Positions 1,767 to 19,495 of a DNA stretch of 21,546 bases are shown one piece after another. Position 1 is the first letter of the stretch. Each line of letters starts with the position of its first letter. The notes below the pieces were generated by a model. It had not been told where the DNA came from, did not search any database, and was given only the letters and a program-made list of their open reading frames with translations. The DNA lies in the NCBI GenBank assembly GCA_034717985.1, contig JAYEMH010000030.1:1-21546 (forward strand), given 5' to 3'. The stretch is from JAYEMH01 sp034717985 [NCBI: Candidatus Ratteibacteria bacterium]. GTDB taxonomy: Bacteria; CAZDME01; JAYEMH01. The translations under genes and the position numbers were made by a program.

Positions 1767-1785
1767 ATTACCTTATAAAAAAATT

Positions 1786-1901
1786 GAAACCAGATACCAA
1801 AATACAGAAACCAGCTAAAAAGCGCAGTTTTACTCTTTGAAGAAAATCGCTTTTAATAAAATTAAATGAATTCTGGTTACTGGTTACTGGTTTCTGGTTT
1901 C
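1786..1901. repeat. Heptamer array with inverted arms between lpxA and lpxI
   Basis: The left arm (1786-1813) is four consecutive 7-bp units, two of them GAAACCA with variants GATACCA and AAATACA. The right arm (1874-1901) is four units in exact 7-bp register, TGGTTAC twice then TGGTTTC twice. TGGTTTC is the exact complement of GAAACCA, so the arms can pair across a 60-bp AT-rich centre. No gene is seen in the gap. On the coding strand the right arm lies just after the lpxA stop. Confidence 0.8.
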
Positions 1902-1908
1902 TTAGTTT

Positions 1909-2682
1909 TTACTTGCAGATACCCCGCTTAGAATCTCCAATGAAATCAATAAGATATTCCGCCTCTTTAGAATTGCCAAATTCCTTTTTAATCCTCGTTA
2001 CTGCTTGAGAGGTATTCAAATTGGAGCGGAAAAGTACCTTGAATATTTTCTTCAGGGTATCAATCCTTTCCTGGGAGAAATTGCTGCGCTGCAGGCCGAT
2101 ATTGTTTATGCCGTAAATCTGCGTGGGATGTCCGTCAGCTCTGGCAAAGGGAACAATATCCTTAACCACTTTGGAACAGCCGCCGATAATAGAAAGTTCC
2201 CCTATGGTTACAAATTGGTGAATGGCACTTACTCCACCGATAATCGCCTTGTTTTTTATATTAACATGCCCGGCCAGGGTTACTTCATTGGCTAAAATCG
2301 CCCCATTATGTACCCGGCAGTTATGAGCCACATGAGCATAAGCCATAATAAGATTACCATCACCGAGAAAGGTGGTGTTGTCTTCACCGGTGGCTCTGTT
2401 TATGGTAACGTATTCGCGAATCATATTTTTATTGCCTACTTTTACAAAACTTTTTTCACCTTTGTATTTCAAATCCTGCGATTGAGAACCGATAACTGCC
2501 CCCGTAAAAATTTGGCAGTTTTCTCCGATGGTGGTAAATCCCGTAATAACGGCGTGCGAACCAATCTTGGTTCCCCGGCCTATTTTAATCTCACCTTCTA
2601 TAACCGCATAAGGGCCAACCTCTACGTTATCTTCTAATTCCACCTTTTTACCAATAATCGCCGTTGGATGGATATTAACCAA
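1909..2682 (-). CDS. lpxA: UDP-N-acetylglucosamine O-acyltransferase LpxA
   Basis: The 257-aa protein has a left-handed beta-helix hexapeptide-repeat N-terminal two thirds and the LpxA helical C-terminus. It transfers a 3-hydroxyacyl chain from ACP to UDP-GlcNAc, or UDP-GlcNAc3N, as the first lipid A step. Diagnostic segments: IGSQSQDLKYKGE (~64-76), AHVAHNC with the catalytic His ~120 (E. coli His125), AGHV (~137-140), and IIGGCSKV, where Gly ~168 aligns with E. coli Gly173, the acyl-chain ruler. A glycine there allows long (C14-type) acyl chains in E. coli; carrying that over is inference. The start appears to be TTG at 2682, with AGGGG overlapping the end of lpxC-fabZ as ribosome-binding site. 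The gap to that gene is only 4 bp, suggesting translational coupling. Confidence 0.96.
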   Translation of the reverse strand: MVNIHPTAIIGKKVELEDNVEVGPYAVIEGEIKIGRGTKIGSHAVITGFTTIGENCQIFTGAVIGSQSQDLKYKGEKSFVKVGNKNMIREYVTINRATGEDNTTFLGDGNLIMAYAHVAHNCRVHNGAILANEVTLAGHVNIKNKAIIGGVSAIHQFVTIGELSIIGGCSKVVKDIVPFARADGHPTQIYGINNIGLQRSNFSQERIDTLKKIFKVLFRSNLNTSQAVTRIKKEFGNSKEAEYLIDFIGDSKRGICK

Positions 2683-2686
2683 AATT

Positions 2687-3997
2687 TTACCCCTGAACTA
2701 ATGAAAACATTAACTCCGCCTCGGCTACCATCTTACCGTCAACAAAAGCCTTAGCCCTGATTTTCCCCGTCCTGGTTTTGAGTCTTATAACTTTAACTTC
2801 GACCAAAAGCTGGTCGCCCGGTTTTACCGGCTGTCTAAATTTAACATTGTTAATACCCATGAAATAAGCCAGTTTCCCCCTGTTCTCAGGTTTACTCAAC
2901 ATCAAGGTTCCGGCCACTTGGGCCATAGATTCAATTACCAGAACCCCGGGCATAACCGGATGCCCAGGGAAATGCCCGGTAAAGAAATATTCGTTTCCGG
3001 TAACATTTTTCAAGCCAACAGCGCGTTTATCCACCTCTAATTCTAAAATTTTATCAACCAGAAGAAAAGGATAACGATGAGGAAGAATTTTCTGAATCTC
3101 TCCGATATCCAGGGGGGGTGAAGAAGGCATATTCGATGTGGCCCGGCTGATTGCTCCCTCTTTAGATTTCTGTTCAAACTTTTTCATCTTTCTAACCAGC
3201 TCTACATTCAGGGCGTGTCCGGATTTAATCGCCATAACATGTGCCTTTAGAGACGAACCGAGCAAAAAAAGATCCCCCATTAAATCCAGAATTTTATGGC
3301 GGACAAATTCGTCCGGGAAACGCAAAGTTTCATTTAAAATATTTTTTTCACCGATAACCACCGCATTTTCCAAACTTCCTCCCTTGATTAATCCCCTTCT
3401 CTGAAGAGATTCTACCTCGTGAAGAAAACAAAATGTTCGAGCGGAAGCAATCTGCCGGGTAAAGGTTTCCTCGTCAATATTAAAGGATGCAAATTGGGCT
3501 CCTAAAGCCGGGTGGTTATAGTCAATGGTAAATGAAAGTTTGAATTCAGGAGCGGGCAAAACCACCAGAAGCGCACCATTCTCAGCCGCCCAGCAAGGTT
3601 CTTTCAAATTGTAGTAACGCTTGGATTCATTCTGCAGTTTAATCCCGGACTCGTTTAATATTTTTACCAGAGGCAAAGCGCTGCCGTCTCCCACCGGAGG
3701 CTCATTGGCATTAAGTTCAATAATCAAATTATCGATTTTAAAACCAGCCAGGGAAGCGAGGATATGTTCAACAGTATGAATCTTTACTTCGCCGCGGCCA
3801 ATGGTTGTCCCCCGGGCAATATCAACAACCTGAGTGATATCAGCGGTTATTTCGGGTTTATTGGCTAAATCGGTTCGGACAAATTTCACCCCGGTATTAA
3901 CCGGAGCCGGAATGAAAGTAATGGTAGTCTCATTCCCCGTATGCAGGCCTATTCCTGAATAGGCAATTTTTCTTTTGATTGTTCTTTGCGGTTCCAT
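2687..3997 (-). CDS. lpxC-fabZ: Bifunctional LpxC deacetylase / FabZ 3-hydroxyacyl-ACP dehydratase fusion
   Basis: A single 436-aa frame encodes two enzymes. Residues ~1-275 are LpxC, the zinc deacetylase that commits UDP-3-O-acyl-GlcNAc to lipid A: IGLHTG near the N-terminus, HTVEH (~74-78, zinc His), RHKILDLMGD (His ~234, Asp ~242) and SGHALN (His ~261). Residues ~295-436 are FabZ: PHRYPFLLVD, GHFPGHPVMPG with catalytic His ~342, and IESMAQ with Glu ~356. FabZ dehydrates 3-hydroxyacyl-ACP and competes with LpxA and LpxD for the same substrate pool. Such fusions are known in Bacteroidetes and some other diderms. I place the start at ATG 3997 because it aligns with the LpxC N-terminus (MxxQRTxKR); ATG 4009 would add four residues. 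Either start lies inside the end of lpxD. Confidence 0.95.
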   Translation of the reverse strand: MEPQRTIKRKIAYSGIGLHTGNETTITFIPAPVNTGVKFVRTDLANKPEITADITQVVDIARGTTIGRGEVKIHTVEHILASLAGFKIDNLIIELNANEPPVGDGSALPLVKILNESGIKLQNESKRYYNLKEPCWAAENGALLVVLPAPEFKLSFTIDYNHPALGAQFASFNIDEETFTRQIASARTFCFLHEVESLQRRGLIKGGSLENAVVIGEKNILNETLRFPDEFVRHKILDLMGDLFLLGSSLKAHVMAIKSGHALNVELVRKMKKFEQKSKEGAISRATSNMPSSPPLDIGEIQKILPHRYPFLLVDKILELEVDKRAVGLKNVTGNEYFFTGHFPGHPVMPGVLVIESMAQVAGTLMLSKPENRGKLAYFMGINNVKFRQPVKPGDQLLVEVKVIRLKTRTGKIRAKAFVDGKMVAEAELMFSLVQG

Positions 3998-5022
3998 TTT
4001 TTTTCCCATTCTTTGAGTTTTTCATCAAGACTTTTTACCAAGGCAAATAATTTGGGCAGACGTTGAATCAAAGCTTTAATTCTTTTTTCATCCTGGTGCG
4101 CCTGGGCCGGAAATCCCGAAACACAGAGACCGGGCGGAATGTTTTTGGTGGCGGCGCTTTTAGCCGCAATCACCGCATTAGCCCCGATATGGATATGTCC
4201 GACCACCCCTGACTGCCCGGCCATGGTTACATTTTTACCCAGGATGGCGCTTCCTGAAATACCTGTCTGGGAAACAATTATCGAGTTCCCGCCAATTTCA
4301 ACATTATGGGCAATTTGAACCAGGTTATCAATCTTGGTGCCCTTTTTGATGTGCGTCTTTCCAATTGTCGCCCGGTCCACACAAACATTAGCGCCGATTT
4401 CTACATCATCTTCAATGATTACCGTTCCCAATTGAGGTATTTTGTGATGTACTCCTTTCATGGGAGCGAAGCCAAACCCATCACTGCCAATCACCGTACC
4501 GCTGTGAATAATCACCCGGTTGCCAATGGCGTTCTTCCCTTTTATAACCACACTGGGGTAGATGCTGCAATCGCTGCCAATCTTAGTGTGGGCGCCAATA
4601 TAAGTATTGGAGTAAAGAATAGTTCTATCTCCTATCCGGGCATGGTCTTCAACTACGGCAAAGGGCAAAATCGTAACATCTTTTCCTAATTTAACGTTTT
4701 TGCCAATATAAGCCCGGGGATGAACCCCTTTTGGGATGAAAATATCATTTGAGACCATCAATTCCATTACCTTGGTAAAAGCGATATAAGGATTCTCTGT
4801 TATGATAAGCGCTTTGCGGTTAAAATTTTTAACCTGGGAAGAAACAATAATGGCTGAAGCCTGAGTCATCTCTAAAAGAGAAAGATAGCGGGAATTAGCT
4901 ACAAAGGTAATTTCTCCTTTCCGGGCCTCTTTGATACCGGAGACACCGCCAATGACAATCTTCTCATCGCCAATTATTTTCCCGTCTACCAAATTAGCAA
5001 TTTCTTTTAAGGTCTTTTTCAC
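3949..5022 (-). CDS. lpxD: UDP-3-O-(3-hydroxyacyl)glucosamine N-acyltransferase LpxD
   Basis: The 357-aa protein has the N-terminal uridine-binding domain (~1-100), then a hexapeptide beta-helix (~100-310), then a charged helical tail. GSDGFGFAP and the block IDNLVQIAHNVEIG with the catalytic histidine (E. coli His239 equivalent) identify LpxD. It N-acylates the product of LpxC. The start is GTG at 5022, overlapping the skp stop as GTGA, so translation is probably coupled. The Lys/Glu-rich tail (KLKEWEKKWNRKEQ) overlaps the start of lpxC-fabZ by about 49 bp in another frame. The order bamA-skp-lpxD-fabZ-lpxA is the classic envelope operon of diderms. Confidence 0.96.
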   Translation of the reverse strand: MKKTLKEIANLVDGKIIGDEKIVIGGVSGIKEARKGEITFVANSRYLSLLEMTQASAIIVSSQVKNFNRKALIITENPYIAFTKVMELMVSNDIFIPKGVHPRAYIGKNVKLGKDVTILPFAVVEDHARIGDRTILYSNTYIGAHTKIGSDCSIYPSVVIKGKNAIGNRVIIHSGTVIGSDGFGFAPMKGVHHKIPQLGTVIIEDDVEIGANVCVDRATIGKTHIKKGTKIDNLVQIAHNVEIGGNSIIVSQTGISGSAILGKNVTMAGQSGVVGHIHIGANAVIAAKSAATKNIPPGLCVSGFPAQAHQDEKRIKALIQRLPKLFALVKSLDEKLKEWEKKWNRKEQSKEKLPIQE

Positions 5023-5579
5023 TGCCTTGCCTTTTTGTTCAGCTCTTTTATCACTTTATCGGTGATGTCGTCATGACCCTGATTATAAAAAATAATTCCT
5101 TGATTCTGGATAACCAAAGTGTATCCCTGTTTCCGGGCAATGCTTTGAACTGCTTTATCTATTTCCTCATAAAGCTCTTTATGCATATCCTGATCCAGTA
5201 CGCCTAATTCCTGATTGGATTCTTTGACCATTTTTTGTAACTTCTCTAATTTCGTTCTTAAAACTTTCTGTTTCTTCTCTTTTTGTTTTTCCGTGAGAGA
5301 TTCTATTTCCTCAACCAGGGCTTTTCTTAACTTTACCACTTCTGCCTGCAATTTAGTTATCTCCTGCTTCTTCTTCTCTTTCTCTTTTTCAAATTTGTTA
5401 AAGAGCGCTTCACGCTTATTATAAGATTTCATAATCCGGCCTAAATCAATTACCGCTATCTTAACATTATCCCGGGCAAAACCCGTATCCACCCCAGAAA
5501 ATAGATATGCGGCAAAAATCAAAACGGCCAATATTTTACTAATTTTTATCACCCCCGGGCTGAAATTATTCTTTTTCAT
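5019..5579 (-). CDS. skp: Periplasmic chaperone Skp/OmpH family
   Basis: The 186-aa protein begins with a signal peptide (basic start, hydrophobic ISKILAVLIFAAYLFSG, cleavage likely near GFARD). The mature start KIAVIDLGRIM matches the OmpH/Skp beta-strand. A very long Lys/Glu-rich coiled coil (~60-150) follows, then the returning strand GYTLVIQNQGIIFYN. Skp trimers hold unfolded outer-membrane proteins in the periplasm and hand them to the BAM complex, whose core gene lies 50 bp upstream. ATG 5579 is preceded by GGAGAG. The family is certain from architecture and neighbours, although sequence conservation is low. Confidence 0.92.
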   Translation of the reverse strand: MKKNNFSPGVIKISKILAVLIFAAYLFSGVDTGFARDNVKIAVIDLGRIMKSYNKREALFNKFEKEKEKKKQEITKLQAEVVKLRKALVEEIESLTEKQKEKKQKVLRTKLEKLQKMVKESNQELGVLDQDMHKELYEEIDKAVQSIARKQGYTLVIQNQGIIFYNQGHDDITDKVIKELNKKARQ

Positions 5580-5629
5580 CTGACTCTCCTATTTTTTAGA
5601 TTCCCATAGTTGCCTTCTACCGCCTGCTT

Positions 5630-7930
5630 TTAAAACGTGTGTCCCATTCTGAAATGAATCCGGCCTTCCTCGGGTTCACCCGGATCGACGTCAAGAGGAT
5701 AGCCATAATCAAGATGAACCGGCCCGATAGGAGTGGTAAGTCTCAAGCCCAGGCCAACTCCGGTATGTAAATCATCGGCATCACAATCACCCTGCTCAGC
5801 CCAGACATAGCCCGAGTCACAAAATATCGCCCCTTTGATTATGGAACGGCGCTTGGCTTCGTCTTGAATTAAAGGAAAAGTAACCTCTATGTTGCCTATC
5901 CCTAATAACCGGCCGCCAATCGGATCGCCATTGCTGTCTTTGGGACCAACTTCTCTTTCTTTATAGCCCCGGATAGTTTGTCCGCCACCGGCATAAAACC
6001 GCTCATAAATTGGCACAGTTAGCGTATCGTCAAAACTCTCTACTAAACCGGCTCGGAAGCGCAAATCCAAAACTATTTTATTTGCGGGCGTAAAAAACCA
6101 ACGGCTATCTAAATTATACTTAGTAAAATCTTTGTCGCCTTCCAGAAATCCCCCGGCGTATTCAGCCGAGATAATATTTCGTGAGCCCCGGGAAGGGTCA
6201 AAGATATTGTCCCGGGTATCCCTCACCAAAGAAAAACGCAAAGAGCTGATTACATTGCTGCCTTCTTCCGCCCAGATATCAGCCGAGGCCTCAGACTCAA
6301 GGTCTCCTATTTTAACCGTCTCATTTTTGTAAGTGAGATACAAACTTAAATCTTCAGCTAAAGTTTTACCCAGACGAATTGTTCCGCCGGTTCTTTCTTC
6401 ATCATATTCTTCCCGCACCCAGCTTCTTCTATAAATATCAAAACCAAAGGAAAGCGGCCAGTCAAAAATCCAGGGTTCGGTAAAACTCAGACTGTAATCC
6501 TTTCTTTTGGTCCCGAATTCAGCGCGAATTTTTATATCCTGTCCATCGCCGGTAAAGCGGGGAAAATTTAATAAATCAAAATTTCTCTGTTCTAACTCCA
6601 CAAAACCTATCGCCTTGTCCACCGAGCTATAACCTGCTCCCAGACCGAAGGAGCCGGTTTTTTCCTCCTCCACCTTAAAGATTAAATGCCGCTGATTGGG
6701 AGCCGTTCCCGGCAAAGTATCAACTTCAACAGTTTTAAAAAAACCGAGATTATAGAGCTTTTCGCGGCTTCGCTCAACTTTTTGCCCATCAAAGATGTCA
6801 GCGGATTTAACCTTCAATTCTCTCCTGATAACAATATCCTTAGTTTTCGTGTTGCCTTCAATCAGAATCTCCTCGATGTAAGCCAGCTCACCTTCTTTAA
6901 TGTGATAATCAATATCGATGGCTGCCTTTTTTGTTCTCTGAATATCCGGCCAGACCCGGGCAAAAATATAACCCTTCTCCGCATACAGCCTGAAGATAGC
7001 GTTGATATCTTCCCGGAGATTTCTCTCGCTGTAAACCATTCCCGGACGCATCTGGATATGCTGAAGAATAGATTCTGAGGAAAAAAGCTTGTTTCCGCTA
7101 ATTTTTAAATCCCGAAGATGATAGAGACTGCCTTCCTCGATAACAATGGTAATGTAAAGAAACTTCTTCGCCTCCCCCAGCGTCAGCTCATAGCTGTCAA
7201 TTTTCGCATCAAGAAAACCTTGATCTTTATAAAAAGAAACGAGCTTGTTTAAATCTCCTTCAAAATTCTTCTCTTTAAAGAATCCCTTATTAAAGAATTT
7301 CTTTTCTCTTGTTTTCATAAGTTTTTTGAGCTTCCGGGCAGAAAAGCTTTTAAGCCCGGTAAAGTTGATTTTTTTAATCCGCACCCGGCACCCCTCTTTA
7401 ATCTGGAAAGCAAGAGTTTTCTTCCCGCCTCTTTGGGTAATATGTGTTTTTATCTCGGCATAGTGATATCCGATATCCTGGTATTTCGCTTTTATTTTTT
7501 TTACATCCTCATGAATGATTTGTTCATTCAGAACTTCTCCCTGCCGGGAGCTGATTAACCCTAAAATCTTTTTAGTCTTTAGTCCCTTGTTTCCTTCGAT
7601 AGTCAGCTCGGTAATAATCGGCTTTTCGGAAACGACAAAAATAAGCTTGATTTGGTTTTTATCTAAATCAACGGTTTCTACCTCAACATCGGAAAACATC
7701 CCTAGAGCGTAGATTCTTTTTAGGTCCTCTCTGGCTTTAAGGCGGGAAAAAGGAGCGCCCACTTTTGTTTCTACCTGGGAGAGGATTAAAAAAGAGCTGA
7801 CCTCTTCGTTCCCGGAAACATCAATGGCTCCCACTACTTTTTCTTCAGCCGCCAGGAGCTGGCCGTCCACCAGATGTCCGAGGGTGAAAACCAATAAAGC
7901 AACAAGAAAACCTGCTTTGATTTTTTGCAT
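5630..7930 (-). CDS. bamA: Outer-membrane protein assembly factor BamA (Omp85 family)
   Basis: The 766-aa protein has a signal peptide (~1-28), five POTRA-type domains (~30-420; e.g. IDVSGNEEVSS, ELTIEGNKGLKTKKI, IKKINFTGLKSFS, LRDLKISGNKLFS, IEEILIEGNTKTKD) and a C-terminal 16-strand barrel. The barrel loop-6 motif appears as GGGQTIRGYKERE (usual VRGF/Y), and the chain ends in Phe (FRMGHTF), the beta-signal of outer-membrane proteins. BamA inserts beta-barrel proteins into the outer membrane. Length fits the family (about 750-850 aa). ATG 7930 is preceded by AAAGGGAT. An extended -10 promoter sits about 45 bp upstream, so bamA-skp-lpx can be transcribed independently of the genes above it. 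Confidence 0.97.
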   Translation of the reverse strand: MQKIKAGFLVALLVFTLGHLVDGQLLAAEEKVVGAIDVSGNEEVSSFLILSQVETKVGAPFSRLKAREDLKRIYALGMFSDVEVETVDLDKNQIKLIFVVSEKPIITELTIEGNKGLKTKKILGLISSRQGEVLNEQIIHEDVKKIKAKYQDIGYHYAEIKTHITQRGGKKTLAFQIKEGCRVRIKKINFTGLKSFSARKLKKLMKTREKKFFNKGFFKEKNFEGDLNKLVSFYKDQGFLDAKIDSYELTLGEAKKFLYITIVIEEGSLYHLRDLKISGNKLFSSESILQHIQMRPGMVYSERNLREDINAIFRLYAEKGYIFARVWPDIQRTKKAAIDIDYHIKEGELAYIEEILIEGNTKTKDIVIRRELKVKSADIFDGQKVERSREKLYNLGFFKTVEVDTLPGTAPNQRHLIFKVEEEKTGSFGLGAGYSSVDKAIGFVELEQRNFDLLNFPRFTGDGQDIKIRAEFGTKRKDYSLSFTEPWIFDWPLSFGFDIYRRSWVREEYDEERTGGTIRLGKTLAEDLSLYLTYKNETVKIGDLESEASADIWAEEGSNVISSLRFSLVRDTRDNIFDPSRGSRNIISAEYAGGFLEGDKDFTKYNLDSRWFFTPANKIVLDLRFRAGLVESFDDTLTVPIYERFYAGGGQTIRGYKEREVGPKDSNGDPIGGRLLGIGNIEVTFPLIQDEAKRRSIIKGAIFCDSGYVWAEQGDCDADDLHTGVGLGLRLTTPIGPVHLDYGYPLDVDPGEPEEGRIHFRMGHTF

Positions 7931-7977
7931 ATTATCCCTTTCGTAATGTATTAGGAGTAACGATAGGAAATTGGGGT

Positions 7978-7986
7978 ATTATACCA
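7978..7986 (-). promoter_or_regulatory. Extended -10 promoter upstream of bamA
   Basis: On the minus strand the sequence reads TGGTATAAT, a perfect TATAAT with the TGn extension. The region one promoter spacing upstream gives only a weak -35 (TTTATC or TTTTAT), which extended -10 promoters tolerate. The predicted transcript would begin near 7971 with a ~40-nt leader ending in the bamA ribosome-binding site. Confidence 0.6.
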
Positions 7987-8049
7987 TATAGCCCCCAAAG
8001 ATAAAAGAGTTTTTTTATCCCCTGTCAAATTCAAGGTAATACCAGTGGG

Positions 8050-8084
8050 AATCCGTGTTTTTTGAATCTGTGTCCATCTGTGGT
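8050..8084. repeat. Single-arm heptamer array (ACCACAG / CAGATTC type) after the tamB-like gene
   Basis: Read on the minus strand, five 7-bp units follow one another (8084 down to 8050): ACCACAG, ATGGACA, CAGATTC, AAAAAAC, ACGGATT. They share a CACAGAT/CACGGAT core. I see no inverted partner arm. The 169-bp gap between the tamB-like gene and bamA holds this array, an AT-rich inverted repeat (8000-8019) and the bamA promoter, and no gene. Confidence 0.55.
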
Positions 8085-8099
8085 TTAACTTCTTTAGGG

Positions 8100-10382: not shown

Positions 10383-10420
10383 AGAAGAAACCCTTTTAAA
10401 GGCAGGGGTACTGTCAAGAA

Positions 10421-10534
10421 TTAACCACAGAGTACAGAGAATTTCTTTAGCGTGGTTAAATTCTTTTCCTATTCTGGTTTATTTCTTTTTTTTCTGCTTT
10501 TTTCAGTGTCTCTGTTCTTCAGTGTTTCTGTGGT
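10421..10534. repeat. Heptamer-type inverted repeat between the tamB-like gene and clpC
   Basis: The gap 10383-10624 (242 bp, no gene seen) has ACCACAG-type units at 10424-10444 and complementary CTGTGGT-type units at 10507-10534. TTAACCAC (10421-10428) also pairs perfectly with GTGGTTAA (10452-10459). The right part, up to ~10580, is strongly pyrimidine-rich on the plus strand. Units are more degenerate than in the other arrays. Confidence 0.5.
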
Positions 10535-10624
10535 TTGTCTTTTGTTTCTTTTTTCTCTCTGTGGAGCCTGCGGTTTATTTCATGTCTTTTTATAACTTAT
10601 TTGACACTACCGAGGCAGGAAGCC

Positions 10625-13042
10625 CTAATTTCTTTTCTCAAATACTAATCTATCCTTCTCTGCTTTCACCAGAATTGTCGTCCCGACGGGAAACTTACCT
10701 TTTAACATCTCCATCGCCAGAGGGTCTTCAATGAACCTCTGAATAGCCCGGCGCAATGGGCGTGCCCCAAAGCTGGGGTCATATCCTTTATCAATCAAAA
10801 ACTCTTTGGCCTTGTTACTGAGCTTTATCTTCACTTCCTTTTCGGTAAGACGCCTCTTTACCTTGTCCACCATTAAATTAACAATCTGGATAAGATCTTC
10901 TTTGGAAAGAGAATTAAAAACAACCACTTCGTCAATTCGGTTGAGAAATTCCGGCTGAAAGGTTTTTCTGAGTTCGTCCATCAGTTTGTCTTTCATTGCC
11001 TGGCGTGATTCTTCCTGGTCGGGAGCGGTAAATCCCATCGAGGTCTTTTTATTAATCAAGCGCGCCCCCACATTTGAGGTCATAATTAAAACTACATTGC
11101 GAAAATCTACGACCCGGCCAAGACTATCCGTAAGCCGTCCCTCCTCAATTACCTGGAGGAGAATATTAAATACATCAGGGTGGGCTTTCTCTATTTCATC
11201 CAAGAGAACAACCGAATAGGGGCTCCTTCTTACCTTCTCGGTTAACTGTCCGCCTTCTTCATAACCGACATAACCCGGGGGAGCTCCGACCAGGCGGGAA
11301 ACAGCAAATTTTTCCATATATTCGGACATATCAATTTGAATCATCGCTTCTTCATTACCAAAAAGGAATTCTGCTAAAGCCCTGGCTAACTCGGTTTTCC
11401 CTACTCCGGTTGGACCCAAAAAGATAAAAGAACCGATGGGTCGTTTGGGATCTTTTATGCCGGCACGGGAACGCCGCACCGCCCGGGTAACCACTGACAA
11501 GGCTTGACTTTGCCCGATAACCCGCCGGCGAAGTTCCTCTTCCATGCGCAGGAGGCGGTCGGTTTCTCCCTCTTCCAATCGGGTAACCGGAACTCCGGTC
11601 CATTTAGAAACAATCAAGGCAATATCTTCGGCGCTGACAAAAACCTTATCTTCCCCCTGTTTATTCTTTGCCCAGTGTTTCTTAACGGCCGCCAGTTCTA
11701 CTTGGAGCTGATGATGGGTGTCGCGAAAACCGGCCGCTTTTTCAAACTCCTGTATTTTGACAGCCGCTTCTTTCTTTTGGCCTGCCCGCTCAATTTTATT
11801 TTCCAACTCCTGTAATTCAGGAGGAGGTGAAGATGTCTTTAAATGAACCCGGGAGCCGGCTTCATCAATCAGGTCAATAGCCTTATCAGGCAAAAACCTT
11901 CCTGAGATATATCGGTCGGAGAGCTTGGCGGCTGCCTCTAAAGCTTCATCAGTAATCTTTACCCGGTGGTGGGCCTCATAACGGTCCCTTAATCCTTTAA
12001 GGATTTCAATCGTTTCAGTCACCGTCGGGGGTTCAATAAAAATAGGCTGAAATCTTCTTTCCAAAGCGGCATCTTTTTCAATATGCTTGCGGTATTCATC
12101 TAACGTAGTTGCCCCGATACACTGAATCTCTCCCCGGGAAAGAGCCGGCTTTAAAATGCTTGAGGCGTCAATCGCCCCTTCGGCCGCCCCGGCACCAACC
12201 AGGTTGTGCATCTCATCAATAAAAAGGATAATATCTTTGGAACGGCAGATTTCATTCATCACCGCCTTAATTCTTTCTTCAAATTGACCGCGATACTTCG
12301 TTCCGGCAACCAGCATGGCCAAGTCTAAAGTTACTACTCTTTGATTTTTTAATAAATGCGGAACTTCATTAGCGACAATTTTCTGAGCTAACCCTTCAAC
12401 AACGGCTGTTTTCCCAACGCCTGCTTCTCCAATTAAAACCGGATTGTTCTTTGTCCGGCGGCTTAAAACCTGAATGATTCTTTCTATTTCATCTTTGCGG
12501 CCAATAACCGGGTCTAATTTTCCCTGGCGGGCAAGTTCGGTTAAATCCCGGCTGAAAGCATCCAGAGTCGGAGACTTGGATTTTTTGCCCCTGGGAGGTT
12601 CAGCCGCGCCTCCTAAAAGATTGCTAATCTCGGTTCTTATTTTCTCGAAAGTGAGCCCCATCTTCTCTAAAACCCTGGCCGCAATCCCTTCTCCCTCTCT
12701 AATCAAACCGAGCAGGATATGTTCAGTGCCAATATAGGTATGGGACATCGCCTGGGCATTTTCAATCGCTAATTCCAGTACCTTTTTAGCCCTGGGGGTA
12801 AAAGGTATCTCGCCCAGGGTTAAAGTAGCCGATCCGCTTTGAACCATTTTTTCGATTTCTAACCGCAGACTATCTAACTCCAGCCCTAAATTCTGCAGAA
12901 CGATAGCCGCTACTCCCTCCCCTTCACGAACTAAACCTAAAAGGAGATGTTCGGTGCCAATATAGGCATGCCCTAATCTTCCGGCTTCCTCCCGGGCCAG
13001 CTTAACTACTCTCTTTGCCCTTTCTGTAAAATGTTCAAACAT
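10625..13042 (-). CDS. clpC: ATP-dependent Clp protease ATPase subunit ClpC
   Basis: The 805-aa Hsp100 unfoldase has two Clp-N repeats (~1-70, ~75-145), AAA+ D1 with Walker A GEAGVGKT (~205-212) and Walker B ILFIDE (~272-277), and a ClpC-type middle domain with the UVR-like [10 protein letters not shown] (~432-441). D2 follows with GPTGVGKT (~543-550) and VVLLDE (~611-616). A hydrophobic-Gly-Phe tripeptide (MGF, ~669-671) in the expected loop fits ClpP docking. Both N-domain GTEH motifs (Glu ~31 and Glu ~107) match the residues that bind phosphoarginine in B. subtilis ClpC. With mcsA and mcsB just upstream, this suggests degradation of arginine-phosphorylated proteins. ATG 13042 has a strong AAGGAGGA site. 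ClpP and a CtsR repressor are not in the window. Confidence 0.97.
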
Positions 13043-13064
13043 GATATTTTATTCCTCCTTGATT

Positions 13065-13139
13065 TAGCTTTTAGCTCTTAGCTCATAGCCACAATTATGT
13101 ACTAAGAGCTATCAGCCACGAGCTATGAGCTATCAGATA
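13065..13139. repeat. Heptamer array with inverted arms between mcsB and clpC
   Basis: The left arm (13065-13092) is four units in exact register: TAGCTTT, TAGCTCT, TAGCTCA, TAGCCAC. The right arm (13105-13139) is five in-register units of the complement, including AGAGCTA, CGAGCTA and TGAGCTA. The arms are separated by 12 bp, so the transcript could fold into a long imperfect stem. On the coding strand the first unit (TATCTGA) contains the mcsB stop codon itself. The array fills the space up to the clpC ribosome-binding site. Confidence 0.85.
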
Positions 13140-14191
13140 TGCGCTAATTTCTCCCTAATCAGCAAGGCCCTCTTCTCATCCCTTTCCATTGGATTTAATT
13201 CTTTCTTTCCCATCTTTTGCAGATGAGCCGGCTGAGTAATAATAAACAATTCGTTTATTTTTCGTCTCTCCACTTCTTTTTCGCTTATAATCCCCAGAGC
13301 CAGGCCAAGACGAATAGTTGATAATAATCCGATTGTTTCCTGGCTGGTAATAAGACGGGCATTCTTTAAAATCCCTAAAGCCCGGAAAACCTTGTCATGG
13401 ATTTCTGATCTTGACTTATTTAAAACAACCTTTTTGGCATTTTGCTCGTATTCGATAATCTGTTTAATTACCCGGTCAATATTTTCAATTAACTCCTCCT
13501 CGGTTCTTCCCAGGCAAATCTGGTTGGAAATTTGAAAATAATTACCCGTGGCCTGCGTGCCTTCTCCGTAAAGACCGCGCACCGCCAATCCCAATTTAGC
13601 CACCGCCTGGAGCAAACGATTAATATCGCGGGAAACCGCCAAAGCCGGCAAGTGCATTAAAACCGAGGCCCTTAAGCCCGTTCCGGTATTGGTAGGACAA
13701 GCGGTCAGATAACCCCATTTAGGCGAAAAGGCATAATCCAAGTTTTTTTCCAGCTCCCCATCAATCTTATTAGAAATCCGCCAGGCCTCTTGCAGTTCAA
13801 GTCCGGAAAAAATAATCTGAAGCCGCAGGTGGTCTTCTTCGTTAATCATCACCCCGGCTATTTCTTTCTCTCCGATAATCACCGCTCTTTCCTTATTGTC
13901 CCTGATTTGTTCATGGCTGATCAGGTGCCGCTCGGCTAAAAACTGCCTGTCCAGAAGCGAAAGCTGGTCCAGACGAATAAAAAGTCCTCTTTTTAAACTC
14001 GGGCATTTGACCGCCGCCGCCTGAATTAAAGAAAGAATTCTTTCCCTATTGGTTTTTTTTGCCCAGTGGGGAAAGGGAATTTTAGAAATATTGCGGGCCA
14101 ATCTTATTCGACTGCTAATAACCACTTCTGAATAAGCGCCTTCGCCTTTAAGCCATTCACCGGATTTATTGATTAAATCTTCAAACTTCAT
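13133..14191 (-). CDS. mcsB: Protein arginine kinase McsB
   Basis: The 352-aa protein belongs to the phosphagen-kinase fold and matches McsB, which phosphorylates arginines of proteins and marks them for ClpC-ClpP. Visible signatures: VISSRIRLARNI (~24-35, nucleotide/phosphate arginines), NEEDHLR (~117-123, catalytic acidic residues), CPTNTGTGLRASV (~165-177, active-site loop), GEGTQATGNYFQISNQ (~209-224), and the C-terminal RDEKRA (~337-342). RDEKRA fits the RDxxRA allosteric phosphoarginine-binding motif that separates McsB from arginine/creatine kinases. Its ATG overlaps the mcsA stop as ATGA, typical of coupled partners. It is followed by clpC after a 90-bp heptamer array. Confidence 0.96.
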   Translation of the reverse strand: MKFEDLINKSGEWLKGEGAYSEVVISSRIRLARNISKIPFPHWAKKTNRERILSLIQAAAVKCPSLKRGLFIRLDQLSLLDRQFLAERHLISHEQIRDNKERAVIIGEKEIAGVMINEEDHLRLQIIFSGLELQEAWRISNKIDGELEKNLDYAFSPKWGYLTACPTNTGTGLRASVLMHLPALAVSRDINRLLQAVAKLGLAVRGLYGEGTQATGNYFQISNQICLGRTEEELIENIDRVIKQIIEYEQNAKKVVLNKSRSEIHDKVFRALGILKNARLITSQETIGLLSTIRLGLALGIISEKEVERRKINELFIITQPAHLQKMGKKELNPMERDEKRALLIREKLAHI

Positions 14192-14706
14192 TTTTCTTTT
14201 TGTTCTTTCTTCTCCAGTGCCCTGATTTTATCTCTTAAACTCGCTGCTTTTTCAAACTCTTCCTGTTCTACCACCCGGGCCAATTCAGCTTTAAATTTTT
14301 CTACGGCCGAAGGAGGCTTCTCTTCCCGACGGCTAAGGACCCGCTTGCCTTTCTTAGGAAATTTTCCCCGGTGCTGTATACTGCCGTGAATTTTTCTGAG
14401 CAGCGGGACCAGTCCTTTTTGAAACGCTTGATAACACTCGCCACAGCCCAGGCGGCCAATCTTTCCAAATTGGGCATAAGTCAAGCCGCAATTTTTACAT
14501 TTAACCCCGGCTTCTTCAACCTTGGGAGGAGTAATACCCAAATTAATCAACCCGACTAAAAGGTCGGCAATCGAAAAATGGGGCTGAATGCTTAAACCCT
14601 TTTTCTGGGCACAATCCTCACAGAGGTGAAGTTCGCTGACCTGGTTATTTACTACTTCAGTAAAATGTACCGTAGCTTCATTTTTCCCGCAAATCTGGCA
14701 TAACAT
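14188..14706 (-). CDS. mcsA: McsA, zinc-finger activator of McsB, with UVR domain
   Basis: I start at ATG 14706, giving 172 aa: the sequence opens with MLCQICGK as in other McsA proteins, and GAGGGATGAG precedes it. Four CxxC pairs are present (Cys 3/6, 29/32, 70/73, 88/91), forming two zinc sites. The C-terminus (~137-166, EQEEFEKAASLRDKIRALE) is a UVR domain like those in UvrB/UvrC and ClpC. McsA binds and activates McsB. The gene overlaps mcsB by 4 bp. A longer open frame to 14802 exists, but the extra 32 residues come from the heptamer repeat and do not look like protein. Confidence 0.93.
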   Translation of the reverse strand: MLCQICGKNEATVHFTEVVNNQVSELHLCEDCAQKKGLSIQPHFSIADLLVGLINLGITPPKVEEAGVKCKNCGLTYAQFGKIGRLGCGECYQAFQKGLVPLLRKIHGSIQHRGKFPKKGKRVLSRREEKPPSAVEKFKAELARVVEQEEFEKAASLRDKIRALEKKEQKEK

Positions 14707-14741
14707 CTCATCCCTCGTTTCACTCAGCAACTGAAAACAAA

Positions 14742-14871
14742 CCACAGTCCACAGATTATTCCACAGTCCACAGTCCATAGAAAAAAACAAAAAATCTACC
14801 AACTATTAACTTCATTCTTAAACTATGGACTATCGACTGTCGACTGCTTGTGCCCGTTAGGGTATGGACTA
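14742..14871. repeat. Heptamer array with inverted arms between ilvE and mcsA
   Basis: The left part holds CCACAGT/CCACAGA units (14742-14755) and, after a 5-bp phase break, CCACAGT twice then CCATAG (14761-14780). The right part holds the partly complementary ACTATGG, ACTATCG, ACTGTCG in register (14822-14842). A further unit, TAGTCCA on the coding strand (14871-14865), begins exactly at the ilvE stop codon. Between the arms is an AT-rich centre without a gene. Confidence 0.75.
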
Positions 14872-15753
14872 TTTCTTAACATAAATTTCCCCTCCCTCTC
14901 TCCTGGTAATTTTATGAAATTCCTCAATCATCTTTAAGGTGGTTTTTCCCGGCTGCCCGTCTCCGATCATCCGGTCGTCTATTTTTACCACCGGAATAAT
15001 TTCTGCCGCTGTTCCTGTCAGGAAACATTCCTGGACACGGTATAATTCCTCCCGGCCGATTTCTTCCTCCGCCAGGGGTAACTCAAATTTCCGGGCTATC
15101 TCCATAACAATATCCCGCGTAATTCCTTCCAGCACGCCTAAGTAAAGCGGCGGCGTTAAAAGTTTTCCCTGGATAACAATGAAAATATTGTCCCCTGTGC
15201 ATTCGGTAACCAATCCCTGACGATTAAACATTATCCCTTCCTCAACCTTTTTGTCTATGGCTTCGATTTTTCCCAGTATATTGTTCAAATAGTTCATCGA
15301 TTTTATCTGAGGGTCGAGGGCCCGGGGGCTGTTACGTTCCGTGGAAAGAGTAGCAATTTCCAGCCCTTGTTTGTAGAAGCTTTCCGGGTAAAGAGAAATT
15401 TTATGGGTGATAATAACAATGGTGGGCTTCGGACATTTTCTGGGGTCAAGCCCCAGATCGCCCGTTCCCCGGCTGACTATCAAACGGATATAGGCATCTT
15501 TAAGGTTATTTTTCCTTAAGGTTACCAAAACCGCTTCTTTAAGCTCTTCTTTACTTAAAGGAATTTTAAGGGCGATTCTCCCGGCTGATTTATAGAGACG
15601 CTCAAGATGCGCTTCAAAGCGAAAAACCCGGCCGGCATAGGAACGAATACCTTCAAAAACCCCGTCACCATAAAGAAAACCGTGGTCAAAAACGGAAATG
15701 AGAGCTTTGCTTTGCGGAAAAAACTTTCCGTTTATATAAATTTGCAGTTCCAT
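14869..15753 (-). CDS. ilvE: Branched-chain amino acid aminotransferase (class IV PLP, IlvE)
   Basis: The 294-aa protein has the fold-type IV pattern: VFDHGFLYGDGVFEGIR (~21-37), YIRLIVSRGTGDLGLDP (~88-104), the PLP lysine in KSMNYLNNILGK (Lys ~151), ECTGDNIFIV, and FLTGTAAEIIPV. It closely resembles IlvE proteins of the archaeal/deep-branching type (from memory, Methanocaldococcus IlvE shares the DLGLDPRKCPKPTI block). The expected reaction is transamination of leucine, isoleucine and valine with 2-oxoglutarate. D-amino-acid transaminase and aminodeoxychorismate lyase are related alternatives that fit less well. ATG 15753 follows AAGGGG. It lies between lolD and mcsA with heptamer arrays on both sides and has no obvious functional link to either neighbour. 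Confidence 0.88.
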   Translation of the reverse strand: MELQIYINGKFFPQSKALISVFDHGFLYGDGVFEGIRSYAGRVFRFEAHLERLYKSAGRIALKIPLSKEELKEAVLVTLRKNNLKDAYIRLIVSRGTGDLGLDPRKCPKPTIVIITHKISLYPESFYKQGLEIATLSTERNSPRALDPQIKSMNYLNNILGKIEAIDKKVEEGIMFNRQGLVTECTGDNIFIVIQGKLLTPPLYLGVLEGITRDIVMEIARKFELPLAEEEIGREELYRVQECFLTGTAAEIIPVVKIDDRMIGDGQPGKTTLKMIEEFHKITRREGGEIYVKK

Positions 15754-15766
15754 TTTTTATCCCCTT

Positions 15767-15801
15767 TATCAGTCGTTAGTCGATAGTATTTAGTCGTTAG
15801 T
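15767..15801. repeat. Single-arm heptamer array in front of ilvE
   Basis: Five units in exact 7-bp register (TATCAGT, CGTTAGT, CGATAGT, ATTTAGT, CGTTAGT) fill almost the whole 51-bp space between the lolD stop (15805) and the ilvE ribosome-binding site. On the coding strand each unit starts with AC, and most carry TAA or TGA. No inverted arm is seen. Confidence 0.75.
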
Positions 15802-15804
15802 AAT

Positions 15805-16491
15805 TTAAATTTCTTCAAGCCGCCCGTCCTGTAACTTCAGCACCCGTTTTGCTTGACGGGCAAGATTTTCATCATGGCTGACTAAAATGAGGGTTTTCCC
15901 CTTGGTTTTATTCAGCTTTTCAAATAATAATCTTTCGATTATCTCCCCGCTGCAGCGGTCTAAATTGCCGGTGGGCTCATCGGCAAAAATTACCTCCGGT
16001 TCGTTAATTAAAGCCCGGGCAATAGCTACCCGCTGCTGTTCCCCGCCTGATAGAGAACCAGGTTTATGTTCGGCCCGTTCCGCCAAACCCATCTCCTCCA
16101 GGAGTTTCATTCCCCTTTTTTGTGTTTCAGTAGAATCTTCCTTCCGGGGGCGAATTAAAGCCGGTAGTATTACATTTTCCAAAGCGGTAAATTCAGGCAG
16201 GAGGTGATAAAACTGAAAAATAAATCCCATCTTGCCCCGGCGTAATCCGTCCCGTTGGTTTTCACTGAGCGAACTAATTGAAGTTTTCTCCCAAAAAATC
16301 TCCCCCCGGCTGGGAAAATCCAAAGTGCCTAAAATGTGCAGTAAAGTGCTCTTGCCTGCCCCGGAAACACCAACGATGCCTAAATTATCCCCTCTTTCAA
16401 CCGTTAAATCAATCCCTTTTAAAACCTCTAATACCTCATGGCCGGTTTGATAAATCTTCTCCAAACCCCGCGCCGCTAAAACTTCACTCAT
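15805..16491 (-). CDS. lolD: Lipoprotein-releasing ABC transporter ATP-binding protein LolD
   Basis: With ATG 16491 as start the protein is 228 aa, the usual LolD length. ABC motifs: Walker [10 protein letters not shown] (~42-50), Q-loop [18 protein letters not shown], signature [15 protein letters not shown], Walker [13 protein letters not shown] and switch His in LVSHDENLA. The [16 protein letters not shown] segment is typical of LolD and MacB-like exporters. It energises extraction of mature lipoproteins from the inner membrane. The start overlaps the end of lolC/E by 8 bp, with GAGGCG as ribosome-binding site inside lolC/E. An in-frame TTG at 16506 is a less likely start. Confidence 0.94.
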
Positions 16492-17707
16492 AACGAATCG
16501 CCTCAATCATATTAAGCCGTGAAGCATGCCAGGCCGGATAAATGGTTGCTAATAAGCTGATTAAAAAAGCGGAGGCGGCAATCCTTAAGAAATCCCATCC
16601 TTCCATTTTAATCGGTAAGTATTCGATAGAATAAACGTCGTAATAAACTTCCGGCAGCCTGATAAATTGATATTTTTCAAGTGATACCGCCAGGACATAG
16701 CCGCCGAAACATCCTAAACCTGTTCCCACCAGCCCAATTGTCAATCCCATCAGTATAAAAATAGTCAAAATGGTTTTGCGGCTGGCGCCCAGGGAGCGGA
16801 GAATGCCGATATCCCGGGTTTTTTCCATCGTAATCATAATTAAAGTGCTAATGATATTGAAAGCAGCCACGATGACAATCAAAGTCAGGATAATAAACAT
16901 TACCTTTTTCTCAAGTTTTAAAGCGCTAAAAAGACTGCGATTGACTTCCAGCCAACTGGTTACGATATAGGAAAATCCTAAATCCCGGCGCAAATTTTCA
17001 CTAATCTGGCCGGCCTTGTCAAGATTATCCAGCTTCAAGGCCAGGCCGGTAATCCTATCGGTAAACCCGAAAAGCCGCTGCGCTTCTTTCAGCTCCAGAT
17101 AAGCCAGCTGCGAATCGTAATCATACATTCCTGATTTAAATACCGCCTGAAGGTGAAATCGGCTTAACTGGGGAATAGTCCCCAGAGGTGTCAGGGTAAA
17201 ATGCGGAGATACTAAAGTAAGCATTTCTCCTGCCTCCACATTCAAACGCCTTTTTAACTCGCCGCCGATTAAAATCCATTTAGGCCCGCCCTGAGGGATT
17301 TCTCCTTCTTTTAAATAACTGCCTAAAGAGGTGGTTTCTAATTCCCGGGCATAATCAATTCCTTTTACCAATACACCGGCAATCTGATCCTGATAACGAA
17401 GCACCGCTTCGCCGCGCACGTACGGGGCAATAGCGACAACGTGGGGATAGCCTTTCAGCTTGCCGATTAAATCCGGATATTCATAAATGCCGTTTTGTCC
17501 TTCTACATAAATGTGCGCTTTCGCCCCCAGGATTTTATTTTTTAATTCGGTGTTAAACCCATTCATAACCGCCAGGACAACAATCAAGGCCATCACCCCG
17601 ACCATAACTCCGGCCGTCGAAATAAGGCTGATTAAAGAAATAAAGGCCTCTTTCCGTTTTCCCAGAAGATAACGTAAGCTTATAAAAATTTCAAAAGGCA
17701 GCTTCAT
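16484..17707 (-). CDS. lolC/lolE: Lipoprotein-releasing system permease LolC/LolE family
   Basis: The 407-aa permease has the LolC/E layout: N-terminal FEIFISLRYL and one membrane helix (~25-50), a large periplasmic domain (~51-265), then three C-terminal helices (~270-292, ~312-342, ~375-397). EKTRDIGILRSLGASRKTI (~293-311) is the cytoplasmic coupling segment of FtsX/MacB-type permeases. With LolD it releases lipoproteins for transport to the outer membrane. Only one permease gene is present here, so it may act as a homodimer, or the second may be elsewhere. ATG 17707 has AAGGAG five bases upstream; that site is formed by the last two units of the adjoining heptamer array. Confidence 0.93.
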   Translation of the reverse strand: MKLPFEIFISLRYLLGKRKEAFISLISLISTAGVMVGVMALIVVLAVMNGFNTELKNKILGAKAHIYVEGQNGIYEYPDLIGKLKGYPHVVAIAPYVRGEAVLRYQDQIAGVLVKGIDYARELETTSLGSYLKEGEIPQGGPKWILIGGELKRRLNVEAGEMLTLVSPHFTLTPLGTIPQLSRFHLQAVFKSGMYDYDSQLAYLELKEAQRLFGFTDRITGLALKLDNLDKAGQISENLRRDLGFSYIVTSWLEVNRSLFSALKLEKKVMFIILTLIVIVAAFNIISTLIMITMEKTRDIGILRSLGASRKTILTIFILMGLTIGLVGTGLGCFGGYVLAVSLEKYQFIRLPEVYYDVYSIEYLPIKMEGWDFLRIAASAFLISLLATIYPAWHASRLNMIEAIRYE

Positions 17708-17708
17708 A

Positions 17709-17830
17709 TTAGCTCCTTGCTCTTGGCTCTTAGCTCATAGTCCTATTTGGCTGTTAGCTCTTAGCTCATAGTCCTATTTCTATTTTGTTACTATGAACCA
17801 TCAGCTATGAACTAAATAAGCTATGAGCTA
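17709..17830. repeat. Heptamer array with inverted arms and a 31-bp-offset direct repeat between lysS and lolC/E
   Basis: The left arm starts with TTAGCTC, CTTGCTC, TTGGCTC, TTAGCTC in register (17709-17736). The 19-bp word TTAGCTCATAGTCCTATTT occurs exactly twice (17730-17748 and 17761-17779). The right arm (17794-17830) carries TGAACCA, TCAGCTA, TGAACTA and TGAGCTA, the complementary family, with one 2-bp phase slip. On the coding strand the first unit TAGCTCA starts exactly at the lysS TAG stop. The array occupies the whole 120-bp gap. Confidence 0.85.
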
Positions 17831-19303: not shown

Positions 19304-19337
19304 TTTTAGCCTTTAAATTAGTAAGATTAGCAATTTT

Positions 19338-19366
19338 AGGGTCTGCTGAATCTTTCAGCAGACCCT
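19338..19366 (-). promoter_or_regulatory. Perfect 13-bp hairpin at the start of the lysS leader
   Basis: The arms AGGGTCTGCTGAA and its exact complement enclose a 3-nt loop. The hairpin begins about 7 nt after the predicted transcription start and ends 34 bp before the lysS ATG. No U-run follows it on the minus strand, so it does not look like an intrinsic terminator. A 5'-end mRNA stabiliser or a protein-binding operator are possibilities. No T-box features are visible. Confidence 0.6.
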
Positions 19367-19379
19367 ATATTAAGCTGCT

Positions 19380-19408
19380 ATTGTATTATAAAGATAATCA
19401 CCTGTCAA
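19380..19408 (-). promoter_or_regulatory. Sigma70-type promoter for lysS and downstream genes
   Basis: On the minus strand, TTGACA (19408-19403) is followed after exactly 17 bp by TACAAT (19385-19380). The -35 is perfect and the -10 matches five of six. Transcription should start near 19373, giving a ~70-nt leader. It is the best promoter in the window. Confidence 0.78.
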
Positions 19409-19495
19409 GCGCTCTTTAAAATAACTATTTTCACATTCGGCGGGCAAGTCTTATCTTCTCTCCACCCGCCCAGAAGTCTCTACACCCGGCCTTCT

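What the first reader, a model, noticed from the sequence alone, without database searches (positions are those of the whole stretch)
1786..17830. A family of gap-specific heptamer arrays, often inverted, fills the intergenic spacers
Seven gaps carry 7-bp-periodic arrays: 1786-1901, 8050-8084, 10421-10534, 13065-13139, 14742-14871, 15767-15801, 17709-17830. The words differ between gaps (GAAACCA, TAGCTCA, CCACAGT, CGTTAGT and others), but the 7-bp register is exact over 4-5 units in the best cases. In five gaps a second array with the complementary words lies 12-60 bp or more away. Shared period with unshared sequence argues against copies of one mobile element. It suggests a process that writes 7-bp units locally, or selection for a structure or periodic protein contact. 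Heptanucleotide tandem repeats are known in cyanobacteria (STRR), but I know of no described system with gap-specific words and inverted arms.
Basis: partly seen in the sequence, partly recalled or inferred. Interest (0 to 1): 0.72.

Follow-up and report, generated by a model that had tools for sequence, protein, structure and literature searches.

The report
Heptamer-armed hairpin repeats between bacterial genes
The spaces between these bacterial genes hold runs of near-identical 7-letter DNA words, often mirrored so that they can fold into a hairpin; they look like small scattered repeat elements whose arms grow and shrink seven letters at a time, and some of the same words turn up in distantly related bacteria.

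Summary
The 7-bp register is real: significant in 5 of the 7 claimed gaps, weak at 10421-10534, absent at 8050-8084; four gaps fold into strong hairpins. The source genome is not held, so I used relatives. In stretches not picked for a hit, lag-7 arrays number 47 in 640 kb of G003 and 30 in 131 kb of G235; other lags from 4 to 13 give 0-15 and 0-1. 'Gap-specific words' is only partly right: in G003 and G235 words form families at many loci, and some window words recur elsewhere, though one G003 word does not spread to its relatives. Within a family the arm order is fixed. Some families are dispersed elements, 81-90% alike, with 7-bp unit differences. Best reading: small palindromic MITE- or REPIN-like repeats whose arms are heptamer arrays that change by 7-nt slippage. 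Not supported: fold-back copying, target-site duplications, adjacent Y1 transposases, viral carriage. Heptamer arrays are known in bacteria; hairpin arms, fixed polarity and many word families make this a new variant.

The parts
1786..1902 (.). heptamer-armed hairpin between the lpxI-like and lpxA genes: left arm 1786-1815 (GAAACCA-type units), right arm 1871-1902 (TTCTGGT/TACTGGT units)
   Evidence: TRF period 7, 4.6 copies; gap lag-7 z 3.5; fold z -4.3
10421..10534 (.). weak candidate: CCACAGAG-type left end and CTCTG/TTCTGTGG right end between clpC and the AsmA-like gene
   Evidence: lag-7 p 0.038; fold z -2.0, 6 of 200 shuffles as good
13063..13146 (.). TAGCTC / GAGCTA hairpin between mcsB and clpC; the TAGCTC run starts directly after the mcsB stop codon (TGA at 13135-13133 on the - strand)
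   Evidence: TRF; lag-7 z 5.8; fold z -3.8; sequence
14742..14871 (.). CCACAGT left arm and CTATGGA/CTATCGA/CTGTCGA right arm between mcsA and the ilvE-like gene; the ilvE-like stop codon TAG (14871-14869, - strand) is the first three letters of a TAGTCCA unit
   Evidence: TRF; lag-7 z 7.2; fold z -5.6; sequence
15767..15801 (.). single-arm array of TAGTCGT/TAGTCGA units between the ilvE-like and lolD genes
   Evidence: lag-7 z 3.4; no hairpin, fold z -0.5
17709..17832 (.). TAGCTC / GAGCTA hairpin between lolE and lysS, with a 31-bp tandem duplication at 17719-17779; the lysS stop codon TAG (17830-17828, - strand) is the first three letters of a TAGCTC unit
   Evidence: TRF; lag-7 z 6.5; fold z -7.9; sequence
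8050..8084 (.). claimed array, not supported as a 7-bp array
   Evidence: gap lag-7 p 0.34, best lag-7 run score 5; fold z -0.9

Best explanation
The arrays are the arms of small, non-coding, palindromic repeat elements of MITE- or REPIN-like kind that lie scattered between genes. A founder element carries a word on one arm and its complement on the other. Copies spread within a genome, and some word families are found in distantly related genomes. Each arm then gains and loses whole 7-nt units by replication slippage, independently of the other arm, and units drift by point mutation. Elements settle between genes because a 7-bp change would shift a reading frame. Shown here, in the relatives G003 and G235: the 7-bp register, dispersed copies, 7-bp unit differences between copies, one arm order per family, and (G003) intergenic enrichment; across genomes, shared words. 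Shown in the window: the register and the hairpins. Inferred: that copies spread by transposition, that slippage is the unit-changing step, and that the window's own arrays belong to the same class. Unknown: the enzyme that moves them, and why the step is 7.
For: Lag-7 arrays: 69 in 849 kb of G003 and 79 in 330 kb of G235; in the stretches not picked for a hit 47 in 640 kb (other lags from 4 to 13: 0-15) and 30 in 131 kb (0-1). Of 18 lag-8 runs in G003, 13 are one octamer family, AGGCACAN. In G003 42 of 69 lie mostly outside ORFs of 80 aa or more, which leave only 10% of the sample. CGAAANN family: 12 further places over 50 bp at 81-90% identity to one copy; 10 copies aligned at 81% mean column identity, with gaps of exactly 7 columns in two and of 15 in a third. 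The GTTTTAR hairpin of G235 sits between shared outer sequences in several copies whose arms differ by 7-bp units, read by eye. Indel length 7 stands out from its neighbours in array pairs (18; 4 and 2 for lengths 6 and 8) and not in others (3; 1 and 4). A complementary partner within 150 bp for 27 of 69 arrays against about 3.5 expected. Arm order: every family with two or more arm pairs shows one order only: CGAAANN 8 of 8, AGGCACAN 5 of 5, ACAGANN 2 of 2, TTAAGNN 3 of 3 (G003) and 6 of 6 (G235, overlapping GTTTTAR), GTTTTAR 8 of 8, AATTGNA 4 of 4, TAGCTC 3 of 3 plus 1 in the window. Shared words: TAGCTC x3 in 6 of 290 genomes (reversed control 1 of 290), CTGGTT x3 in 3 of 116 (control 1 of 116), GACTAT x3 in 2 of 33 chosen genomes, 40 and 5 matches (control 1 match in each of 2).
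Against: The window's own genome is not held, so its elements are not shown to be multi-copy there beyond two families seen twice. The search patterns are idealised: the window itself carries the exact three-unit pattern only for CTGGTT, doublets for TAGCTC, and not even a doublet for GACTAT. One much-repeated G003 word is not shared: ACAGANN x4 has 26 matches in G003, 4 in G038 (where the reversed control also has 4) and none in 58 other relatives, two of which match the control. No mobilising enzyme was found: Y1 transposase genes have a lag-7/8 run nearby in only 5 of 30 loci, and G235, the densest genome read, has none. Left and right flanks of the G235 modular elements do not match within an element more than in shuffled pairs (40 rows, mean 1.25 against 1.41, p 0.68), so no target-site duplication is shown. 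Many arrays have no partner arm above the control threshold (42 of 69; also window 15767-15801). Shared words could also come from convergence or vertical descent. The 31-bp duplication in the window is not a multiple of 7.
Confidence: 0.6

Rival explanations
1. Purely local slippage: each gap grew its own heptamer array from chance sequence, with no dispersal. This is the ordinary heptanucleotide simple-repeat explanation; the length 7 would come from the polymerase contact, as proposed by Mrazek et al. 2007 (read only as cited in PMC4679880 and PMC4692102).
For: Heptamers are reported as the commonest repeat class in most genomes (quoting Mrazek 2007); 7-bp indels between copies; single-arm arrays with in-register drift, such as L079 4106-4246 and G124 L187; 42 of 69 arrays without a partner above the control threshold; ACAGANN confined to G003.
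Against: Does not explain the complementary partner array (27 of 69), one arm order per family, 81-90% alike dispersed copies or the same word in distant genomes.
Confidence: 0.17
2. Selected regulatory structures: bidirectional terminators, mRNA-stabilising stems or repeated protein-binding sites.
For: Strong hairpins in four window gaps; in G003 none of 39 gap elements is divergent although divergent gaps make 17.2 of 91.9 kb, and 1 start-side edge lies within 10 bp of a start against 7.4 expected; in G003 all 27 partnered arrays have the purine-rich arm first.
Against: G235 shows no such avoidance (11 divergent of 49; start side 8 against 10.6). The window's TAGCTC hairpins have the opposite purine order. 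One of 26 pairs has a two-sided change. The terminator scan finds 26 sites against 23.3 in shuffles. No Rfam family matches in the window.
Confidence: 0.12
3. Fold-back (snap-back) copying: one arm is written on the other as template during replication.
For: Arms share words; L039 245-115 folds into one hairpin of -102 kcal/mol that reaches well into the flanks.
Against: In 20 arm pairs the order of unit variants matches between arms no better than with shuffled units (excess 0.02 +/- 0.06 identical bases per unit).
Confidence: 0.05
4. An active writer, such as a reverse transcriptase or telomerase-like enzyme with an internal template, adds 7-nt units.
For: Strict 7-nt step with changing words; not excluded.
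Against: No candidate gene of this kind was looked for (only Y1 transposases); a constant template would not give many word families in one genome; slippage needs no new enzyme.
Confidence: 0.04

Closest known systems
Heptanucleotide long simple sequence repeats and cyanobacterial STRR
   Same: Intergenic runs of 7-nt units; indels mostly in 7-nt steps between two Cyanothece strains (PMC4679880, abstract and sections 3 and 10 read).
   Different: Here the units often lie on two complementary arms of a hairpin, in many word families per genome, with degenerate units and one arm order per family.
TAACTGA direct repeats of Beggiatoaceae, Cyanobacteria and Bacteroidetes (MacGregor 2015, PMC4679880)
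   Same: One heptamer dispersed over many intergenic sites and shared by distant lineages; no transfer mechanism evident.
   Different: 169 direct sets and one indirect set in the main genome, mostly just before start codons; here arms are often inverted and no pile-up at starts was seen.
GGGNATC and GGGGAYT repeats of Xanthomonas and Nostoc (Rehm 2015, PMC4692102)
   Same: Degenerate heptamer runs between genes, some as inverted repeats, length variation between related organisms.
   Different: Those are G-rich and form quadruplexes in vitro; the window words hold no GGG tract.
Tandem heptamer and octamer sites of Geobacter metallireducens (PMC2700814, passages read)
   Same: Five-unit heptamer sites (MTYCTGA), four-unit octamer sites (GTTGCTYN) and three-unit TCTCCGTS sites, mostly in pairs; opposite strands at variable distance stated for the TCTCCGTS class. 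The authors read them as global regulator sites.
   Different: A few fixed classes in one genome; no account of one arm order per word or of words shared across genomes in the passages read.
MITEs, and REPINs with RAYT transposases (PMC3116915, passages read)
   Same: Short inverted-repeat hairpins dispersed between genes, with no gene of their own.
   Different: No target-site duplication was shown and few have a Y1 transposase nearby; arms are tandem heptamers, not one REP word.

Membership tests
Heptanucleotide simple sequence repeats | period of exactly 7 above chance | tested here: met
   z 5.95 at lag 7 only; 5 of 7 claimed gaps
Heptanucleotide simple sequence repeats | copies differ by 7-nt steps | tested here: met
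   in G003 repeats 18 gaps of length 7 against 4 and 2 of lengths 6 and 8 (pairs share copies); not testable for the window's own loci
MITE | dispersed near-identical copies without a gene | tested here: met
   met in G003 and G235; not testable for the window
MITE | target-site duplication | tested here: not met
   40 rows for the G235 modular family, p 0.68; other families not tested
MITE | terminal inverted repeats shared with a transposase-bearing element | not tested
   outer inverted sequences seen by eye around the GTTTTAR hairpin of G235; no full-length partner was sought
REPIN / RAYT | Y1 transposase gene beside the element | tested here: not met
   a lag-7/8 run nearby in 5 of 30 Y1 loci
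REPIN / RAYT | Y1 transposase gene in the same genome | tested here: inconclusive
   PF01797 matches in 11 of 12 genomes where arrays were seen and in 14 of 28 where none was seen in the piece read (set not balanced for genome size); but G235, the densest, has none (1.5 Mb held, completeness unknown)
Quadruplex heptamers | G-tracts of three or more in each unit | tested here: not met
   window words TAGCTC, CTGGTT, GACTATC, CCACAGT hold none
Intrinsic terminator | GC-rich stem followed by a T run, above chance | tested here: not met
   26 sites against 23.3 +/- 4.7 in shuffles over 1700-20000
Known structured RNA | match to an Rfam family | tested here: not met
   none in the window at gathering scores

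The most novel reading that the evidence does not exclude
A transferable class of heptamer-array elements exists in uncultured bacteria with a partly shared word vocabulary, a fixed arm order for each word and, in G235, a modular build (one constant tail of about 23 bp behind five kinds of head, chained head to tail in places), moved by an enzyme not yet known.
Probability: 0.15. Interest if true: 0.75.

Novelty: new variant of a known kind. Interest (0 to 1): 0.5.

Why it matters
Heptamer repeats have long been noted in bacteria; the papers read here give only a proposal for the length 7 and no account of their spread. Genomes such as G003 and G235 hold dozens of arrays in the parts read, so the unit step, the word vocabulary and the arm order can be measured, and close strains could show unit gain and loss directly. 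If the elements are mobile, they are a repeat class of uncultured bacteria that I did not find described as such.

Tried and rejected
Fold-back copying between arms: unit order matches no better than shuffled units in 20 pairs. Target-site duplication for the G235 modular family: looked real by eye (CAAG/CAAG, AAAT/AAAT) but not above shuffled pairing. RAYT link: 5 of 30 Y1 loci have a lag-7/8 run nearby; by presence, 11 of 12 array genomes against 14 of 28 others, but none in G235, so left open as presence and not supported as adjacency. A constant purine-first rule: holds for 27 of 27 partnered arrays in G003 but not for the window's TAGCTC hairpins, so arm order goes by family. Arrays at stop codons: suggested by three window gaps, but 14 against 9.6 expected in G003 and 13 against 11.0 in G235, so not claimed. 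A fixed core with variable spacer: 36 arrays, sum of squares 405 against 309 expected, only 5 of 36 with p < 0.05, so weak. Two-sided pair changes: 1 of 26 pairs. ACAGANN as a shared word: not found beyond G003 above control. A paper search with repeat letters returned five papers, unrelated by title and abstract.
Full report
What the window is. The main genes lie on the - strand: an lpxI-like gene, lpxA, an lpxC-fabZ fusion, lpxD, ompH-like, bamA, an AsmA-like gene, clpC, mcsB, mcsA, an ilvE-like gene, lolD, lolE, lysS, a peptidyl-prolyl isomerase and prfB (names are mine from the translations, not from a family search). No whole genome is held. Among 60 relatives of G003 the nearest by the lpxC-fabZ product are G008 and G006 (61%), then G003 (58%); by McsB the best of 24 hits are 59% (L001), 57% (L002, candidate division NPL-UPA2) and 56% (L003, in G003). 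No close relative was found, so unit gain and loss could not be watched at the window's own loci.

The observation. Over the 10 gaps, lag 7 is the one lag that stands out (556 against 451, z 5.95). Gap by gap, five of the seven claimed places are significant, 10421-10534 is weak and 8050-8084 is not a 7-bp array. Four gaps fold into hairpins well beyond shuffles. Two word families each serve two gaps. The 31-bp tandem duplication at 17719-17779 is not a multiple of 7.

Relatives. I read 849 kb of G003 in 60 stretches; 12 of them lie on contigs chosen because a pattern had hit there. Runs of lag matches, low complexity removed, number 69 at lag 7 and 0-18 at other lags from 4 to 13; in the 48 unselected stretches 47 and 0-15. 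Lags 14 and 21 follow as harmonics (49 and 23), and lag 16 as that of the octamers (21). Of 18 lag-8 runs 13 are AGGCACAN. In G235 (330 kb in 20 stretches, 12 on contigs chosen for a TAGCTC hit) the counts are 79 at lag 7 and 0-6 elsewhere; in the 8 unselected stretches 30 and 0-1. For a wider survey I took one piece of up to 20 kb from 39 genomes among the relatives (19, leaving out G038, whose piece was placed on a hit, and 20; 12 pieces are shorter than 20 kb, the shortest 619 bases, and one is all N). Five of 39 hold a lag-7 array, 15 arrays in 660 kb, against 0-4 at each other lag from 4 to 13. Of the 24 McsB loci only L003 has any. So the trait is patchy: dense in a few genomes, not seen in most pieces.

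The words are families. In G003 the words ACAGANN, AGTTNAA, TTAAGNN, ATTGNAA, CGAAANN and AGACTAT recur at several loci. G004 has the AGGCACAN-then-CGAAACT succession upstream of its lpxC, as in G003 elements. G235 has TAGCTC, GTTTTAR, AATTGRA, AAATGCA, TTAGGGR and CCCTGTN. Words of the window's kind occur elsewhere: TAGCTC x3 in 6 of 290 genomes, reversed control 1 of 290; CTGGTT x3 in 3 of 116, control 1; GACTAT x3 in 2 of 33 chosen genomes, control 1 match in each of 2, with G124 holding both TAGCTC and GACTAT. These patterns are idealised; the window carries the exact triplet only for CTGGTT and doublets for TAGCTC. Against sharing: ACAGANN x4, with 26 matches in G003, is not above control in any of the 59 other relatives searched. 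In two G246 loci the TAGCTC hairpins, by eye, have the same arm order as in the window and G235.

Arms. A complementary partner array lies within 150 bp for 27 of 69 G003 arrays, against about 3.5 expected from the flanks of other arrays. For each family with two or more pairs only one order of arms is seen (I chose the word list after seeing the data, copies of one family are related by descent, and two of the word patterns overlap in G235, so the counts are not independent trials). In 20 arm pairs the order of unit variants does not match between arms: the arms share a word but are not unit-by-unit copies. This tells against fold-back copying and against tight selection on pairing. In the CGAAANN family 1 of 26 predicted pairs has a two-sided change.

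Copies and units. The CGAAANN element is dispersed over G003, 12 further places at 81-90% identity to one copy; aligned copies show gaps of exactly 7 columns in two of 10, and of 15 in another. Between repeat copies in G003, gap length 7 is in excess over its neighbours when the copies hold arrays (18 in 185 pairs; 4 of length 6, 2 of length 8) and not otherwise (3 in 156 pairs; 1 and 4); lengths 1 and 2 are the commonest in both (pairs share copies, so they are not independent). In G235 the GTTTTAR hairpin sits between shared outer sequences, and copies differ by whole units (by eye). Also in G235, 37 places carry a constant tail (up to 5 mismatches); many follow one of five kinds of head, and three are chained at L203 13464-13633. 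Left flank and right end look alike by eye, but pairing within elements is not above shuffled pairing (p 0.68), so no target-site duplication is claimed.

Context. In G003 39 of 64 merged elements lie in called gaps: 34 tandem, 5 convergent, 0 divergent; in G235 49 of 64 do: 31 tandem, 7 convergent, 11 divergent (simple ORF calling). Avoidance of divergent gaps thus holds in one genome only.

Y1 transposases. PF01797 matches 11 of 18 genomes and 14 of 22. By my sorting, 11 of 12 genomes where arrays were seen have one, against 14 of 28 where none was seen in the piece read. This leans towards a link, but the sets are not balanced for size, several array genomes were picked by word hits, the genes have a lag-7/8 run nearby in only 5 of 30 loci, and the densest genome, G235, has no match. 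I leave a Y1 part open and do not file the elements as REPINs.

What was not found. No Rfam family in the window. No excess over reversed words in viral contigs. Paper searches brought up heptamer arrays in other bacteria but, in the listings and passages read, no account of one arm order per word or of many word families per genome. Most subscription papers are not in that library; the PNAS survey of Mrazek et al. 2007, the STRR work of Mazel et al. 1990 (recalled) and the small dispersed repeats of Elhai (the SDR citation in PMC3116915; authorship recalled) were not read. Other papers were seen in passages only: PMC4853749, PMC6749651 and PMC4060949.

Verdict. The best account is a class of small dispersed hairpin repeats whose arms are heptamer arrays; slippage in 7-nt steps is supported, transposition is inferred, and the reason for the number 7 stays open.

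Noticed in passing
window 21125-21140, - strand: The prfB reading frame listed at 20099-20947 is preceded on the - strand by AGGGGGTATCTTTGAC, the classical RF2 programmed +1 frameshift site (motif recalled), so the gene probably begins further upstream.
   Followed up: no
window 19337-19367: Perfect 14-bp inverted repeat with a 3-base loop, TAGGGTCTGCTGAA..TTCAGCAGACCCTA, upstream of lysS; the surrounding fold has z -4.2.
   Followed up: no
window 21273-21355: A 39-bp tandem repeat, 2.1 copies, upstream of prfB.
   Followed up: no
L203 13464-13633 and 37 places in L198-L217: Constant tail AAAAATGGAAATTCCTATACGAT, often behind one of five kinds of head, chained head to tail in a cassette-like way in places.
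   Followed up: partly
L027, L032, L037, L042, L044, L077, L088, L093, L112, L114 (G003); L118 (G004): Octamer AGGCACAN arrays, also as inverted arms, in several copies outside CGAAANN arms.
   Followed up: partly
L199, L201, L203, L204, L207, L208, L211, L213-L216 (G235): TTAGGGN / CTAACCC-type heptamer arrays, telomere-like in wording, some with both arms.
   Followed up: no
L077 3554-3895 and many places in G003: Another dispersed repeat family of about 200 bp in which no lag-7 array was called.
   Followed up: no
Y1 transposase genes are commoner in genomes where heptamer arrays were seen (11 of 12 against 14 of 28), yet missing from the densest one, G235.
   Followed up: partly
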